DNA of 64,000 nucleotides from a virus. Position numbers and translations under genes: made by a program. Location of the stretch: positions 18,524 through 82,523 of the IMG/VR virus record IMGVR_UViG_3300033571_013388; one strand, given 5' to 3'. Shown in pieces: positions 1,939-62,390 of the stretch (within the stretch, counting starts at the first letter, position 1; each line of letters starts with the position of its first letter). The notes beneath the pieces were generated by a model. That model made no database searches, was not told the origin of the DNA, and worked only from the letters and a program-made list of their open reading frames with translations.

Positions 1939-1967
1939 GAATAAAAGGGTTATTAACCCTTTTATTC
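1939..1967 (-). terminator. Terminator of the sigma factor gene
   Basis: A perfect 13-bp inverted repeat (1939-1951 with 1955-1967) has a 3-nt loop and reads into TTTTATTC on the minus strand. The sigma gene stop codon at 1962-1964 lies inside one arm. Confidence 0.75.
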
Positions 1968-2789
1968 ATTTATTAAATTATATAAATCGTGTGCGTTATG
2001 TCTCAATTTTCTTATAGCTTTTTCTTTAATTTGTCTTATTCTTTCCTTTGTTAAATTATATCTTTCACCGATTGCTTCCAAGGTCATTGGTCTGCAATCT
2101 GTGTTTATACCAAAATAAGCCTCAATAATCATTCTTTCTCTAGTTTCCAAAACAGATAAAGTTTTATTTATCTCATTCTTTAACCTTTCATCAATTTCTA
2201 AAGAATCTTCACTATCTTCAATAGGTATTAAATCAATTAATTCATCCCCGTCTTCGTTAATCACTTCATTTAATGATGCACATCTAGGATAAATTACCAA
2301 AGACATAATATCATTATCCTTATCGAATATTTCACCAAATATAGGTTCTCTTTCGTTTTCAGTCTCAAACTTGGTTATCTCTTTGTTTAGATACGATATT
2401 TTACTTATAACGTTTGCTGGTAATCTTACTATCCTAGCATTATCATTTAAACTTTGTAAAATCGATTGTTTAATCCACCACACAGCATATGATATAAATC
2501 TAAAACCTTTCTTATGGTCAAATTTACTTGCCGCTTTTATTAAACCATAGTTACCCTCGTTTATTAAATCAGATAATGGTAAACCTTGTCCTTGGTATTC
2601 TTTAGCTATTGAGATAACAAATTTTAAATTTGCTTTAACCAATTGGTGGATTGCTTTTTGGTCGCCTAGCTTTATTCTTTTCGCCAAATCTACCTCTTGT
2701 TCTTTGGTTAGGATTATTGATTTCTTAACGTCTTTAAAATACTTTGCAATACTATCATCACTATCAAAATTTAAAAAAATTTTACTCAT
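1962..2789 (-). CDS. RNA polymerase sigma factor, sigma-70 family, resembling a Bacteroidota primary sigma
   Basis: The 275-residue protein contains region 1.2 (LTKEQEVDLAKRI), region 2 with FRFISYAVWWIKQSILQSL, region 3 and region 4.2 with LTKERIRQIKEKAIRKLR. These blocks are close to the RpoD of Flavobacteriia, which is also short and lacks most of region 1.1. T4 uses a small divergent late sigma, gp55; this gene is much more host-like. The segment between regions 3 and 4 is acidic and divergent. The gene is preceded by a good host-type promoter and followed by its own terminator, so it forms a single-gene unit. Inference: it redirects host polymerase to phage promoters, perhaps the AT-rich late motif. 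It could also simply raise expression from host-type promoters. Confidence 0.9.
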   Translation of the reverse strand: MSKIFLNFDSDDSIAKYFKDVKKSIILTKEQEVDLAKRIKLGDQKAIHQLVKANLKFVISIAKEYQGQGLPLSDLINEGNYGLIKAASKFDHKKGFRFISYAVWWIKQSILQSLNDNARIVRLPANVISKISYLNKEITKFETENEREPIFGEIFDKDNDIMSLVIYPRCASLNEVINEDGDELIDLIPIEDSEDSLEIDERLKNEINKTLSVLETRERMIIEAYFGINTDCRPMTLEAIGERYNLTKERIRQIKEKAIRKLRHNAHDLYNLINE

Positions 2790-8082: not shown

Positions 8083-8107
8083 ACGATTATTTGTTATGTT
8101 GTGCAAG
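8076..8107 (-). promoter_or_regulatory. Host-type promoter for the nuclease-gp47-gp46 operon
   Basis: On the minus strand CTTG (8107-8104) is followed by 20 nt and TATATTTG (8083-8076). The ATG follows the -7 element after only 5 nt. Confidence 0.65.
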
Positions 8108-8127
8108 TATTTATTGTAAAACTTAAG

Positions 8128-8625
8128 ATGAGCCAAATTGTTAAAAAATTACTTCGTGAAGCTTTAGAGATACCATCATTTAGATTACCAAAAGATGTTA
8201 AGATTAGCGATGATGAAAAACTAGCCATTAAAAACGTTAAATGGACTGACCTTAAAATAGATGATTTAGGTGGTTCTGGAAACATTGCTCATTTGGCTGT
8301 TTTATTACCCTTTGAAACCATTGCTTCAGAATCAATCGTCATTGATATTCAATTAATTAATGACATGGTATATCAAATGCATGTACATTTACCAGAAGAT
8401 TTAAGAGGATTAGGTTTAGGTTATAAAATATATAAAGCCGTTATAAACGATTTAGGACATTTATATTCTGGTAAAGGTAGAAGATTAAACCCAATGGTTA
8501 CTAAGATATGGGATAAACTAAAAAATGATTCGGATTTTGATTGTGTTTCTAGTGAATTAGGTGATTTATGTATGATAAAAAACCACCCAAATAAAGAAGA
8601 ATTAACTCAATTCGTTGTAGGTTAA
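8128..8625 (+). CDS. GNAT-like acetyltransferase domain protein
   Basis: This is one of only two convincing plus-strand genes. ATG 8128 gives 165 residues; an upstream GTG at 8101 is less likely. The segment VHLPEDLRGLGLGYKIYKA (residues 86-104) has the RGxGxG acetyl-CoA binding signature of GNAT motif A, followed by an Asn- and Leu-rich helix. The substrate is unknown. The N-terminus MSQIVKKLLREALE carries an LLxE motif that recurs in other proteins here, so the product might be packaged in the head (inference). It is transcribed divergently from the nuclease operon and convergently with the primase gene, whose 3' end it overlaps by 24 bases. Confidence 0.7.
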   Translation: MSQIVKKLLREALEIPSFRLPKDVKISDDEKLAIKNVKWTDLKIDDLGGSGNIAHLAVLLPFETIASESIVIDIQLINDMVYQMHVHLPEDLRGLGLGYKIYKAVINDLGHLYSGKGRRLNPMVTKIWDKLKNDSDFDCVSSELGDLCMIKNHPNKEELTQFVVG

Positions 8626-15375: not shown

Positions 15376-17121
15376 TTACGATAAATCTACCCAAGTTGTT
15401 CCGCTAGCGTAACCTTGAAATTTATCAGTTATAGTGTTATATATTATCATACCATTTTCAGGTGTCAGTGCATTTCTTTGTGTTAAGTCTAATTTTTTAA
15501 CAACAATAGGGTTAACATAAACTGTATTTGGTAAAGTATTTGTTATATTATTACCCAAAACTATTGTTGTTGTGCCACTTGCTGTTGAACCCGTTCCATG
15601 CACAAAACTATAATTTCCCAAAGCTGTTGTTCCCCTACCGCCAGCATGACTGGCTATACCTTCTGCTGTTGTGAACACACCTTCAGAATGTGAATAATCA
15701 CCATTAGCCGTTGTGCCAGAACCCTCAGCATGACTAGCATATCCATAAGTTCTATTATTGCTACCTTCAGCGTGACTGTAAGGCCCTGTAACTTGATTAC
15801 TCAAGCCTTCACCATGAGCTCCATCACCATAAACAACATTGTTTTGCCCTTCACCATGTGCGTAAAAACCATAAACAATAACTTGATAACCTTCAGCATG
15901 AGCTCCTACAACTAATGCATTTGTTTCATGACCCTCAGCATGGCTGTAATCGCCTATTGCGTTTGTAACAATACCCTCCGCATGACTAGCATTACCAATA
16001 GCTATTGTGCCAGAACCTTCAGCATGAGCTCCAGTACCAGATGCATTTGTTAAAAAACCCTCAGCATGGCTAGTTATGCCACTTGCGATGGTTAAAACCC
16101 CCTCGGCATGACTAGATGTGCCAAATGCCGTTGTACCAGACCCCTCGGCATGGCTAGTATTCCCAAATGCTGTTGTAGAATCACCCTCAGCATGACTAGT
16201 TATGCCACTTGCGATGGTTAAAACCCCCTCGGCATGACTAGATGTGCCAAAAGCTGTTGTGCCAGAACCCTCAGCATGTGAACCATATTCACCAGAAGCT
16301 GTTGTTTGCCAACCTTCAGCATGTGAGCTGTAATTAGCAATAGCTTTGGTTTGATAACCTTCGGCATGCGAATCATCACCAATAGCTGTTGTTTGATAAC
16401 CTTCAGAGTGACTAGCTATGCCAGAAGAAGTTGTTTGAAAGCCCTCGGCATGTGATTGTGGTCCCATGGCTCTTGTTTGCCAACCTTCAGCATGACTATA
16501 TACCCCACCAGCTATTGTTGTTCTACCTTCAGCATGACTAGAAGTACCTGAAGCTGTTGTTTGAAAGCCCTCGGCATGACTATATAACCCAACAGCTGTT
16601 GTCAAATTACCCTCAGCATGACTAGTGTTACCGCTGGCTGTTGTCAAATTACCCTCAGCATGACTAGCACTACCAATTGTAATCGTGCCTGAACCTTCGG
16701 AATGGCTATCAGCACCTATTGCTGTAGTGTTATTCCCTTCGGCATGACTTGAAGAGCCGAAAGCTGTAGTATTATTACCTTCAGCATGACTAGATGAGCC
16801 TGAAGCTGTTGTTTGATAACCCTCAGCATGACTACCATTATTACCTGAAGCTAATGTATTTCTACCTTCAGCAACAGCATAAGTACCAGTTGCGTCTAAC
16901 CCGCTTGTGTTATTGGCTTTAATTGGAAAGTTTGAACCGTTCCAAGTTGAACCAGAGGTCCAATAATCGCCAGTATTTATTGATAATAGGTTGACAACCT
17001 TTGATAGGGGTAATTTGTAGGAGCTACCAGCTGGGTCTTGTGAGGTATCGCCAGTAACAACAATGTGAATTAAATCTGTTAAACTTGCTGCTGAATATTC
17101 TGTTCTATCTGTTAGTTTCAT
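15376..17121 (-). CDS. Trimeric fibre with about 29 YadA-head-like SHAEG repeats
   Basis: The 581-residue protein has an N-terminal attachment region of about 90 residues. About 29 tandem 14-residue repeats of the type SHAEGxxTTAxGxx follow (a few are 15), as in the left-handed beta roll of YadA-type trimeric adhesin heads. It ends with a region containing ENGMIIYNT and WVDLS, typical of Bacteroidota fibre C-termini. It is very probably a trimeric receptor-binding or shaft fibre. Repeat positions 1-5 are almost invariant while the loops vary. A 56-base segment is duplicated exactly 126 bases apart, showing recent repeat expansion. GATATTTATAA lies at 17131-17141 upstream. Confidence 0.85.
   Translation of the reverse strand: MKLTDRTEYSAASLTDLIHIVVTGDTSQDPAGSSYKLPLSKVVNLLSINTGDYWTSGSTWNGSNFPIKANNTSGLDATGTYAVAEGRNTLASGNNGSHAEGYQTTASGSSSHAEGNNTTAFGSSSHAEGNNTTAIGADSHSEGSGTITIGSASHAEGNLTTASGNTSHAEGNLTTAVGLYSHAEGFQTTASGTSSHAEGRTTIAGGVYSHAEGWQTRAMGPQSHAEGFQTTSSGIASHSEGYQTTAIGDDSHAEGYQTKAIANYSSHAEGWQTTASGEYGSHAEGSGTTAFGTSSHAEGVLTIASGITSHAEGDSTTAFGNTSHAEGSGTTAFGTSSHAEGVLTIASGITSHAEGFLTNASGTGAHAEGSGTIAIGNASHAEGIVTNAIGDYSHAEGHETNALVVGAHAEGYQVIVYGFYAHGEGQNNVVYGDGAHGEGLSNQVTGPYSHAEGSNNRTYGYASHAEGSGTTANGDYSHSEGVFTTAEGIASHAGGRGTTALGNYSFVHGTGSTASGTTTIVLGNNITNTLPNTVYVNPIVVKKLDLTQRNALTPENGMIIYNTITDKFQGYASGTTWVDLS
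15600..16840 (-). repeat. 42-bp coding tandem repeats (SHAEG array)
   Basis: About 29 degenerate 42-bp units encode the 14-residue repeats. Bases 16070-16125 and 16196-16251 are identical, offset by exactly three units (126 bases). Confidence 0.85.
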
Positions 17122-60104: not shown

Positions 60105-60593
60105 TCAAAAAAGCAATATAGCCCTATCGAAACGTAACGTAGCGGTAATCTCAGCAATACCATCATCATCCATTGATAAGTCACCGAAGCCAACGTTGGT
60201 TAACATAGTTCCGTCCAACAACCACTTCTCAACCACAACACCAGTTGGGTCAAGCAATTCTAATTCAACTGGACGTTTGTAACCAGCAGCGTAACCTTGA
60301 CGACCTGTGATAGATTCAGAGTGAAGACGAACCCACTCCATTATTGCTTGTGAAGCAGAAGGACCAATTGGGTCACGGAAAGTAACATCAATAGCTTCCC
60401 ATGTAAAACGTCCAAGAACCCATGTAGATGTATTAAGAAAAGGAATTTCTACTTCATTTTGTGTAATTGAAGGTCTTGATGCTGAAGCCAACCACCATTG
60501 TTGAATACCAAGGTCAGCAGGGAAAGTAAGTAGCCAACGATTCTTTTTCTTAGGTTCGTAAGGCAAAGGCATTTTCATTAGTAAATCAGCCAT
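60105..60593 (-). CDS. 19: Tail tube protein, gp19-like
   Basis: The 162-residue protein has the tail tube pattern: RWLLTFPADLGIQQWWLASASRPS, NTSTWVLGRFTWEAIDVTFRDPIG, ASQAIMEWVRLHSESITGRQGYA and ITATLRFDRAIL. Length matches T4 gp19 (163). It polymerises into the inner tube through which DNA passes. Codon use is richer in GC and C-ending codons than neighbours, as expected for a very highly expressed gene. It has its own AT promoter motif and terminator. No sheath gene is visible; it may lie beyond 64000. Confidence 0.85.
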   Translation of the reverse strand: MADLLMKMPLPYEPKKKNRWLLTFPADLGIQQWWLASASRPSITQNEVEIPFLNTSTWVLGRFTWEAIDVTFRDPIGPSASQAIMEWVRLHSESITGRQGYAAGYKRPVELELLDPTGVVVEKWLLDGTMLTNVGFGDLSMDDDGIAEITATLRFDRAILLF

Positions 60594-60681: not shown

Positions 60682-60712
60682 TTTGTTATTTAGAAAAAAA
60701 TAACTACCTTTG
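60682..60712 (+). promoter_or_regulatory. Perfect host-type promoter for the CAP-domain gene
   Basis: TTTG (60682-60685), exactly 19 nt, TACCTTTG (60705-60712) on the plus strand. This is a full match to the Bacteroidota housekeeping consensus. The leader is about 13 nt. Confidence 0.8.
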
Positions 60713-60730
60713 TATTATAAATAAATTACA

Positions 60731-61279
60731 ATGAAAAAAGTATTTTTTATCTTTTCACTTTTATATACCATGACTTCTTATAGTCAAGACTTTGAAATGT
60801 TAAACTTTATAAACATTTATAGAATTAATAATGGTTGTGAATCCCTGATATATTCTGAACATTTAGAAAAAATAGCAAAAAATCAAAATTCAGTAAATAT
60901 TTTAACTGATAGTGTTTCACATTCACACAAAGCTAGCGAAATATCGTTAAAAGGTTGTTCACTTCCAGTGACAAAAGACAAACAACAAAACTTTAACAAT
61001 TTTTTGCAAAAATTCTTTAAAATAGAATATATAGAACCAAAAAAAGAATCAGAAGTGTTAACGTTTATTAAATTGTACTCAATTTATTTATTTAGCACAT
61101 CAAAAAGTCATAATAAAATATTATTGGGTGAATACAAATATATTGGTTTTGATGTTTATATTAAAAATATTAGTTTTGTAAAAAATACAATTACTATAGG
61201 TAAAAAAACATATACAATAGATAAATTAATAAATCATTACAAATCGGATTTTTATGTGGTTATTGATATTAAAAAGTAG
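60731..61279 (+). CDS. Secreted CAP-domain protein
   Basis: The 182-residue protein has a clear signal peptide (MKKVFFIFSLLYTMTSYSQ, cleavage after residue 18 or 19). The mature part resembles the CAP/SCP domain: MLNFINIYRINNGCESLIYSEHLEKIAKNQN, then SHSH (H64, H66) and STSKSHNKILLGEYKYIGFDVYI. Bacterial CAP proteins are exported and of varied, mostly unknown activity. Cys36 and Cys76 could form a disulphide. The gene is on the opposite strand to all structural neighbours, has a perfect host promoter, and its 3' end overlaps the next gene by 11 bases. It behaves like an independently expressed cargo gene (moron). Confidence 0.75.
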   Translation: MKKVFFIFSLLYTMTSYSQDFEMLNFINIYRINNGCESLIYSEHLEKIAKNQNSVNILTDSVSHSHKASEISLKGCSLPVTKDKQQNFNNFLQKFFKIEYIEPKKESEVLTFIKLYSIYLFSTSKSHNKILLGEYKYIGFDVYIKNISFVKNTITIGKKTYTIDKLINHYKSDFYVVIDIKK

Positions 61280-62390
61280 TACATCTAACATCACCAAACC
61301 TACCTTTTTTAACATTGCATTTTAATTTTCTTTTTTTGAATGTTTTTTTTGTTTGTTTAAACTTTTTTGCGTTTGTTTTAATAATTTTGGTTAACTCAAA
61401 CCTATATTTTTCAACAATTTCCTCTGGTTTTACTGTTTCACTAACTTCTTGACTAAACTCGACTATAAGAGATACATTAACATATCTAAATTTAGATGTT
61501 AAATTTCTTAAACGTTTAATTTCTTCCTTGTCAGACCTAGCATCATAAAATTGTTTTGTACTTACAATATCAGAACCATTATTAGGAATTTCTCTATGGG
61601 TTATTATTATGTCAGAATCTATATCATTTATCATTTTAGTCATCATTTTTGTCCTAAGTTCAGCTAATTTAATATTACCAGTTTCATCGTATTGTGTTTT
61701 ATTTTCTTTGTTTTTTGTAGCTTCAGCATCTGTTGAAGATTCTATATAAGCTGACAATATTTTACCACCATTTAACTTTATTGTATCTATTGTCGAATTT
61801 AAAGTATTTAAACTATTTTCATTAAAATTGTAACTACCAGATTCAAAAAAATTATCATTATCCAATTCAATATCAACTGTATCAATAACTACTATGTTTA
61901 TTTTTTGTTCAACACCTCTTATTGTATCTGTTGAAATATCACTCTTTTTAAGAGCATAACCTTTTTCAAGTTTACCACTTAATTTTTTTAAATTATTAAC
62001 AACGACATTATCAACCCTATAAGAAATATTTTTGTTTTTAGCGATTTCATTAAAATCATCAACAATTTTTTCTGCGTTTTTTGCCAATAAAGAATCTGGA
62101 TTGCTTATACCTTTTTCAGAAAAGGCTTGAGCCAATTCCTTTGTCTTTTGTTCATCCTCCAATGTTGATTTTATTTGGTTCATTATTTTCGAATTGGATA
62201 ATGCATTTTGAGCATTAGCCTTATTTAAACCAGTCAACCCAACACCCATAAGCATAGCTACACCTAACAATACTTCTTTAAACCCTTCTTCTAAAACTTC
62301 TTTAGATTCAAAGTCATTACCTAAACGATTTTTTTGTTCGTTTAAAAGCACTGTTTCATATTGTTTATGTGTAATTTTTAGCCTTTTCAT
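61269..62390 (-). CDS. OmpA-like domain protein, probable virion component
   Basis: The 373-residue protein starts MKRLKITHKQYETVLLNEQ, followed by a hydrophobic segment at about 40-55 ending ANAQ. Residues about 165-270 have the OmpA-like pattern: DNDNFFESGSYNFNENSL (beta-helix start), ILSAYIESSTDAEAT, and NIKLAELRTKMMTKMI with the N-x-x-L-x-x-x-R signature. OmpA-like domains bind the diaminopimelate of peptidoglycan. The C-terminal 60 residues are very basic (KKFKQTKKTFKKRKLK). It is coupled to the gene upstream, with 1 base between them. A role in contacting the cell wall is inferred; DNA binding through the basic tail is another option. Confidence 0.65.
   Translation of the reverse strand: MKRLKITHKQYETVLLNEQKNRLGNDFESKEVLEEGFKEVLLGVAMLMGVGLTGLNKANAQNALSNSKIMNQIKSTLEDEQKTKELAQAFSEKGISNPDSLLAKNAEKIVDDFNEIAKNKNISYRVDNVVVNNLKKLSGKLEKGYALKKSDISTDTIRGVEQKINIVVIDTVDIELDNDNFFESGSYNFNENSLNTLNSTIDTIKLNGGKILSAYIESSTDAEATKNKENKTQYDETGNIKLAELRTKMMTKMINDIDSDIIITHREIPNNGSDIVSTKQFYDARSDKEEIKRLRNLTSKFRYVNVSLIVEFSQEVSETVKPEEIVEKYRFELTKIIKTNAKKFKQTKKTFKKRKLKCNVKKGRFGDVRCTTF

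What the first reader, a model, noticed from the sequence alone, without database searches (positions are those of the whole stretch)
60682..61279. Lone secreted CAP-domain gene with a perfect host promoter on the opposite strand
The gene is on the plus strand within the minus-strand structural block, has a full TTTG-N19-TACCTTTG promoter and encodes a signal peptide plus a CAP-like domain. It looks like a moron expressed during infection from host polymerase, with its product sent to the periplasm or outside. Possible roles are superinfection exclusion or changes to the cell surface; these are guesses.
Basis: partly seen in the sequence, partly recalled or inferred. Interest (0 to 1): 0.6.

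Follow-up and report, generated by a model that had tools for sequence, protein, structure and literature searches.

The report
Secreted phage CAP protein with partner
A large virus of Bacteroidota bacteria carries a small exported protein of the CAP family under its own bacterial-type promoter, and this gene almost always sits end-to-end with a gene for a capsid-tagged, cell-wall-binding-type phage protein, which suggests that the two form a working pair, perhaps to keep a second virus out.

Summary
ORF 60731-61279(+) lies among minus-strand tail genes. It has a signal peptide, a TTTG-N19-TACCTTTG promoter (only one in 64 kb; 0.13 expected) and a CAP domain. The window protein is below Pfam's CAP cut-off alone (15.1 of 21.1 bits), but an orthologue passes (26.5) and all nine aligned sequences match. 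Orthologues 41-45% identical sit at the same place in other phages, under purifying selection (dN/dS about 0.15), and keep the promoter.

'Lone' is wrong. In every assessable lineage found with CAP as query, the CAP gene adjoins a protein with a capsid-targeting-like N-terminal tag, tail-to-tail: either an OmpA-like (peptidoglycan-binding type) protein, as here (61269-62390), or mostly an unrelated ~430-aa family. In reverse, a scan with the 430-aa family alone hit 11 lineages; 10 have a CAP gene at its 3' end. CAP-less relatives of the window mostly have only the partner's N-terminal third.

Best reading: a two-gene module. CAP is exported during infection and acts in the periplasm on the partner brought by superinfecting virions, as T4 Spackle acts on gp5 lysozyme or enterococcal PrgA on PrgB. 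The pairing is shown; the exclusion role is inferred (about 0.38).

The parts
60682..60712 (+). Bacteroidota-type promoter: TTTG (60682-60685), N19, TACCTTTG (60705-60712)
   Evidence: Only strict match in window, 0.13 expected; conserved upstream of orthologues; TAnnTTTG is the -7 box of flavobacterial sigma A (PMC9723704)
60731..61279 (+). Secreted CAP-domain protein, 182 aa
   Evidence: purifying selection
60731..60784 (+). Signal peptide, residues 1-18, likely cleavage before Gln19
   Evidence: Lys-rich start, hydrophobic core, small residues before Gln at the end, same in all orthologues; inspection, no SignalP run
60800..61159 (+). CAP-like domain, residues 24-143; H64, H66, E70, H127 invariant in 9 orthologues
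   Evidence: Pfam stretch, alignment A4
61269..62390 (-). Convergent partner gene, 373 aa: N-terminal tag, hydrophobic segment, C-terminal OmpA-like domain; 3' end overlaps the CAP gene by 11 nt (61269-61279)
61461..61865 (-). OmpA-like domain of the partner (about residues 176-310); D221 and R246 at the positions of the OmpA diaminopimelate-binding Asp and Arg
   Evidence: Invariants of A9; Pfam OmpA over cut-off in homologue L130; role of Asp/Arg PMC6572160
62337..62390 (-). Capsid-targeting-like N-terminal tag of the partner, residues 1-18 (MKRLKITHKQYETVLLNE)
   Evidence: [LI]xE end in 20 of 21 partners against 10.5 +/- 2.3 in shuffles
60105..60593 (-). Tail tube gene, flank used to find the same site in relatives

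Best explanation
SHOWN FROM SEQUENCE: a CAP-domain protein with an export signal and its own Bacteroidota-type promoter, forming a conserved two-gene module with an adjacent phage protein that has a capsid-targeting-like N-terminal tag and, in this phage, an OmpA-like (peptidoglycan-binding type) domain. INFERRED: CAP is transcribed from early in infection by RNA polymerase with a sigma-A-type factor and sent through Sec to the periplasm or cell surface. The partner is made with the structural proteins, packed in the head, trimmed by a T4-type prohead protease and delivered with the DNA of the next infection, where it works at the peptidoglycan. CAP in an already infected cell meets and disables (binds or cleaves) the partner delivered by superinfecting virions of the same kind, or protects the cell from it, so it serves as an exclusion factor matched to the partner.
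For: CAP with signal peptide. Own promoter: 13 of 19 CAP genes have a TANNTTTG box within 90 nt of the ATG against 8 of 44 other window genes (p=3e-4); in several the box ends 5 nt before the ATG, so the mRNA would be leaderless. Partner genes almost never have one (1 of 14). Pairing: all assessable CAP lineages; reverse scan with the 430-aa partner: 10 of 11 lineages have CAP at the 3' end, two of them in the same direction, so orientation can change while adjacency stays. The pair occurs in phages up to 735 kb and at different genome places. Partner tag: 20 of 21 end in [LI]xE; T4-type prohead protease (PF03420) in 5 of 14 related records. OmpA-like domain. Among relatives CAP and partner diverge faster (42-84% and 43-92% identity) than tail tube (93-100%). 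Precedents: T4 Spackle, an early periplasmic protein that inhibits the tail lysozyme of incoming phage (PMC7677548); T5 Llp, the exclusion lipoprotein encoded next to pb5 (PMC9586334); pCF10 PrgA, a surface-exclusion protein with a protease domain that probably cleaves PrgB of the same operon (PMC10588982). One CAP of this set matches the SEC10/PgrA surface-exclusion model (L126, E=3e-4, below cut-off).
Against: No functional data. Timing inside infection is not known; the phage has its own sigma factor. Packaging and injection of the partner are inferred from a tag. The 430-aa partner has no recognised domain and is not homologous to the OmpA type outside the tag, so 'peptidoglycan' is not shown for it. 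In the tail-tube sample 3 of 5 long OmpA-type partners have no CAP gene, so the OmpA type does not need CAP. CAP and partner distances correlate, but no better than CAP and sheath: no sign of specific co-evolution. The PrgA match is weak, and that PrgA's protease domain is of CAP type is my own knowledge.
Confidence: 0.38

Rival explanations
1. Envelope or lysis pair: CAP and the OmpA-like partner act together late, loosening the link between outer membrane and peptidoglycan or helping release or DNA passage. They are synergists, not antagonists.
For: The partner has a peptidoglycan-binding type domain; LysM-CAP proteins exist in Bacillus megaterium phages Slash and Stills, so CAP and wall-binding modules do go together.
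Against: Separate promoters and mostly opposite strands suggest different timing; the partner has no export signal at its N-terminus but a capsid-type tag.
Confidence: 0.2
2. CAP changes the host surface on its own (receptor masking, stickiness, protection from grazers or other phages), and the pairing reflects only co-inheritance of a cargo cassette.
For: The sheath-tube gap is a cargo site with endonucleases and a small unknown gene on the opposite strand; many bacterial CAP proteins are surface proteins (own knowledge).
Against: Pairing persists at unrelated genome places, over great divergence and in both orientations.
Confidence: 0.22
3. CAP helps the partner: an accessory that processes, stabilises or positions the partner in the periplasm of the infected cell.
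For: Strict adjacency; a protease domain is reported for the exclusion protein PrgA (PMC10588982).
Against: A partner delivered with the DNA arrives before CAP is made; three long OmpA-type partners lack CAP.
Confidence: 0.12
4. Spurious: a chance ORF or an annotation by weak similarity, not a CAP gene.
For: Window protein is below Pfam's cut-off; no PDB fold match.
Against: Conserved ORF, start, signal peptide and promoter in distant relatives, dN/dS about 0.15, orthologue over the cut-off.
Confidence: 0.04

Closest known systems
CAP/SCP superfamily, bacterial YkwD-like proteins (Pfam PF00188)
   Same: Secreted, about 120-residue domain, conserved His/Glu/His pattern and the S-P-x-H motif in most members
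   Different: Very divergent: window protein under the Pfam cut-off, S-K-S-H instead of S-P-x-H, no second conserved acidic residue identified, no LysM or other attached domain
LysM-CAP proteins of Bacillus megaterium phages Slash and Stills (PMC3861416, PMC4541274)
   Same: Phage-encoded secreted CAP together with a wall-binding module; role unknown
   Different: There one protein of probably temperate phages; here two adjacent genes in large contractile-tailed phages of Bacteroidota type, the wall-binding-type protein bearing a capsid-like tag
T4 Spackle (gp61.3)
   Same: Phage protein exported to the periplasm; proposed here to act likewise on a virion protein directed at peptidoglycan
   Different: Small helical bundle, not CAP; its target is tail lysozyme gp5; function demonstrated
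T5 Llp next to pb5 (oad)
   Same: Secreted exclusion protein encoded beside the virion protein it counters
   Different: Lipoprotein that blocks the receptor FhuA, not CAP
Enterococcal PrgA / SEC10 surface exclusion protein
   Different: Long stalked cell-wall-anchored protein of a conjugative plasmid
T4 internal proteins (IPI-III) with capsid targeting sequence
   Same: Short N-terminal tag with diverse cargo behind it (for the partner gene)
   Different: Sequence of the tag differs; packaging and cleavage not shown here

Membership tests
CAP/SCP superfamily (PF00188) | Profile match over the curated cut-off | tested here: inconclusive
   Window protein 15.1 of 21.1 bits: not met alone; orthologue L087 26.5 bits: met; 9 of 9 members match
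CAP/SCP superfamily (PF00188) | Conserved His/Glu/His cavity residues | tested here: met
   H64, H66, E70, H127 invariant in 9 sequences; the second Glu of the eukaryotic tetrad not identified
CAP/SCP superfamily (PF00188) | Alpha-beta-alpha sandwich fold | tested here: inconclusive
   Model pLDDT 77, pTM 0.75; best viral matches are SCP proteins, TM 0.40-0.50; no significant PDB match
CAP/SCP superfamily (PF00188) | Secreted | tested here: met
   Signal peptide by inspection in all members; no SignalP, no experiment
OmpA-like peptidoglycan-binding domain (partner 61269-62390) | Profile match | tested here: inconclusive
   Window partner itself no match; 4 of 9 close homologues match sub-threshold, best 1.2e-3; homologue L130 over cut-off, 32.3 bits
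OmpA-like peptidoglycan-binding domain (partner 61269-62390) | Asp and Arg that bind diaminopimelate | tested here: met
   D221 and R246, with N239 and L242, invariant in A9; roles PMC6572160
T4-type capsid-targeted internal protein (partner) | N-terminal targeting tag ending in a prohead protease site | tested here: inconclusive
   [LI]xE in 20 of 21, reached by none of 500 shuffles; protease gene in relatives, not in the 82.5-kb record; LxE/IxE specificity from own knowledge
T4-type capsid-targeted internal protein (partner) | Present in virions and injected | not testable with these tools
   Needs virion proteomics
Superinfection exclusion protein (Spackle, Llp, PrgA type) | Blocks a second infection by the same kind of phage | not testable with these tools
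   Needs an expression and challenge test
Superinfection exclusion protein (Spackle, Llp, PrgA type) | Early expression | tested here: inconclusive
   Own sigma-A-type promoter; timing unknown
Known anti-phage defence systems | PADLOC model match | tested here: not met
   No match for CAP or partners

The most novel reading that the evidence does not exclude
A widespread two-gene system of large Bacteroidota-type phages, up to 735 kb: a head-packaged envelope effector (OmpA-like or a second, unnamed ~430-aa family) and a dedicated secreted CAP antagonist, the phage counterpart of an effector-immunity pair working in the periplasm.
Probability: 0.28. Interest if true: 0.82.

Novelty: new variant of a known kind. 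Interest (0 to 1): 0.62.

Why it matters
CAP proteins occur in all domains of life, and for most bacterial ones the role is unknown. Here a CAP gene is tied, over great evolutionary distance, to one specific partner gene, so its target can be guessed and tested directly. If the exclusion reading is right, it adds a case like T4 Spackle in a little-studied group of phages and gives a way to predict which virion proteins act in the periplasm.

Tried and rejected
L003-L006 of the first viral scan are false relatives (the EKIAKNQN peptide inside a T4-like structural protein). Single-sequence AF2 failed (pLDDT 33); the alignment-based model replaced it. PDB fold search gave only weak ribosomal-protein matches. 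phmmer/hmmsearch of the window family against PDB gave noise, while the CAPs of related jumbo phages match solved SCP proteins 4ifa and BB0689. Scans of genomes of 84,980 bacterial and archaeal species for close relatives of the window CAP and of the L029 CAP found none, so a recent host origin has no support, but the method finds close relatives only. 'The two partner families are one' rejected: hhalign aligns only the N-terminal tag. 'CAP and partner co-evolve specifically' not supported (the window rows for sheath there are invalid because the L001 sheath fragment is frame-broken). The association of CAP with the long partner is p=0.001 over all lineages (biased towards CAP finds), only p=0.095 in the tail-tube sample. 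The loose promoter pattern on the plus strand is not enriched. L136's neighbour looked like a peptidoglycan-binding protein by eye; Pfam did not support it, so it is not counted as wall-binding.

Full report
WHAT IS THERE. The ORF 60731-61279(+) codes for 182 aa and stands on the plus strand between the tail tube gene 60105-60593(-) and a 373-aa gene 61269-62390(-) whose last 11 nt it overlaps. The window is 18524-82523 of an 82,523-base virus record. In 64 kb the strict pattern occurs once, against 0.13 expected; looser forms on the same strand are not enriched. TAnnTTTG is the flavobacterial sigma-A -7 box (PMC9723704).

IS IT A CAP PROTEIN. Alone, the window protein is below Pfam's cut-off (15.1 of 21.1 bits). 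Its orthologue in L016/L087 is 45% identical and above it (26.5 bits). All nine aligned members match CAP, and no other family consistently. H64, H66, E70 and H127 are invariant. The profile of the family matches the profile of more typical CAP genes from related jumbo phages (96.5%, E=7e-10; the shared signal peptide adds to this), and those match solved SCP proteins. AF2 on the nine sequences gives pLDDT 77 and pTM 0.75 with a weak stretch at 46-66. The two best structural matches in the viral library are SCP-domain phage proteins, with moderate TM of 0.40-0.50; the PDB search gave nothing significant. I take CAP membership as very likely (about 0.95) by sequence and only partly supported by structure.

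CONSERVATION. Scans with the CAP protein and with the tail tube gene found the same gene at the same place, between tail tube and sheath and opposite to them, in L001/L002 (99%), L087, L088, L090, L092, L097, L100 and L107 (41-45% identical to the window), plus a barely similar CAP gene (17% in alignment) at the same site in L029/L095. dN/dS is 0.14-0.16 for close pairs. Seven of eight loci keep the full promoter 12-26 nt before the ATG although the DNA upstream is a different gene in different phages; 3 of 44 other window genes have one. In several related CAP genes the -7 box starts exactly 12 nt before the ATG; as the box spans -12 to -5 (PMC9723704), transcription would start at the ATG itself.

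THE PARTNER. The gap between sheath and tube was annotated in all tail-tube loci. CAP-bearing phages always have the long form (368-389 aa) of the neighbour; CAP-less relatives mostly have only its N-terminal third (123-147 aa) or nothing; three (L017, L022, L032) have a long form without CAP. Over all lineages p=0.001, but that includes phages found through CAP; in the tail-tube sample alone p=0.095. L029 is informative: its near relatives L025-L028 and L030 lack both genes, and it has both. The long form ends in an OmpA-like domain: Pfam matches in 4 of 9 at best 1.2e-3, over the cut-off in homologue L130 (32.3 bits), close to it in L125 (26.9, cut-off 27.2) and weaker in L133 (23.6). The Asp and Arg that bind diaminopimelate in OmpA (PMC6572160) correspond to D221 and R246, invariant in A9.

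THE PAIR IS GENERAL. CAP genes elsewhere in related large phages (a 297-kb record with two tandem copies, L124/L127, L120/L126, L128, L129, L131/L132, L133, L130 in a 476-kb record, and LR756501 of 735 kb) all stand tail-to-tail with a tagged protein; over the set the gaps are -14 to +25 nt. For L125, L130 and L133 it is the OmpA-like type; for the others a ~430-aa family without known domain. L136 has a different 190-aa tagged protein; L137 ends at a contig edge and cannot be judged. The reverse test is independent of CAP: a scan with the 430-aa family alone gave 15 loci in 11 lineages. Ten lineages have a CAP gene as the gene at the 3' end, eight convergent and two (L140-142, L144) in the same direction; the eleventh (L148) has two secreted genes there, with no CAP match in Pfam. 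So adjacency is kept even when orientation changes. I know no neutral reason for this.

WHAT THE PARTNER MAY BE. Twenty of 21 partners start with a short tag ending in [LI]xE (e.g. ...LLNE|Q...INE|E...ISE|Q), against 10.5 +/- 2.3 in shuffled N-termini and 3.3 +/- 1.6 inside the proteins; none of 500 trials reached it. T4 internal proteins carry a capsid targeting sequence and are injected (PMC3012670, PMC12373910); cleavage after LxE/IxE by T4's prohead protease is my own knowledge. That protease family is found in 5 of 14 related records. Packaging of the partner is therefore a reasoned guess.

MECHANISM. CAP is exported (inferred from the signal peptide) and has its own sigma-A-type promoter; the partner has hardly ever such a promoter (1 of 14 sequences) and no export signal at its N-terminus but a capsid-type tag. 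A periplasmic protein made after infection can meet a head-packaged protein only when another virion ejects it, or at lysis. That makes exclusion of superinfecting virions the most economical reading. T4 Spackle (PMC7677548), T5 Llp beside pb5 (PMC9586334) and PrgA beside PrgB (PMC10588982) work in comparable ways, and one CAP of this set weakly matches the SEC10/PgrA exclusion model. I give this reading about 0.38; a synergistic envelope or lysis pair 0.2; a surface change unrelated to the partner 0.22; a helper of the partner 0.12.

NOVELTY AND LIMITS. Phage CAP proteins are known with unknown role (Slash and Stills). In the papers searched I found no description of this pair; that search covers open papers only. 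Nearly all relatives are metagenomic contigs; lineages were separated by identity, not by a tree; the host is inferred to be Bacteroidota, probably Flavobacteriia, from promoter and signal-peptide style and from Flavobacterium phages among the tail tube's relatives.

Noticed in passing
window 1962-2789 (-): RpoD/RpoS-like sigma factor encoded by the phage (NCBIfam best 5.9e-62); it could read the host-type promoters.
   Followed up: partly
window 61269-62390 (-); L001 4129-6666; L088 33-1424; L129 3503-3922; many others: Many proteins of these phages share a short N-terminal tag (K-[IL]-x-[IL]-T-E-x-[QE]... ending in [LI]xE); a possible capsid-targeting signal that would list the packaged proteins of the whole group.
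   Followed up: partly
L087 581-2014, L008, L020, L032-L037, L002 2182-3072: The gap between sheath and tail tube, and the gap beside the tube, often hold endonuclease-like genes (MTES_1575/DUF559 type), apparently homing endonucleases.
   Followed up: partly
L088 3804-4109, L092 5652-5960, L097 2838-3134, L107 5665-5964, L012, L017, L023: A ~100-aa opposite-strand gene of unknown function often lies directly upstream of CAP or takes its place; no PADLOC or Pfam match for L088's copy.
   Followed up: partly
L122 5363-5962 and 5911-6477: Two tandem, divergent CAP genes next to one partner in a 297-kb phage; likewise in L123.
   Followed up: no
L148 4267-4917 and 4940-5491: Two secreted genes of unknown kind replace CAP beside a 430-aa partner; the second ends in a CAP-like RWKNSPKGH stretch.
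   Followed up: partly
window 15376-17121 (-): Protein built of many SHAEG repeats (phrog_25468, E 5.7e-108), resembling trimeric adhesin head repeats in a tail gene block.
   Followed up: no
window 8101-8625 (+): A second plus-strand ORF (174 aa) inside the minus-strand genes, starting with a tag-like sequence.
   Followed up: no
L145, 7-405 nt after the end of the partner match: A copy of the L139 CAP gene that lacks about 40 residues at the junction of signal peptide and domain: possible deletion or assembly variant.
   Followed up: no
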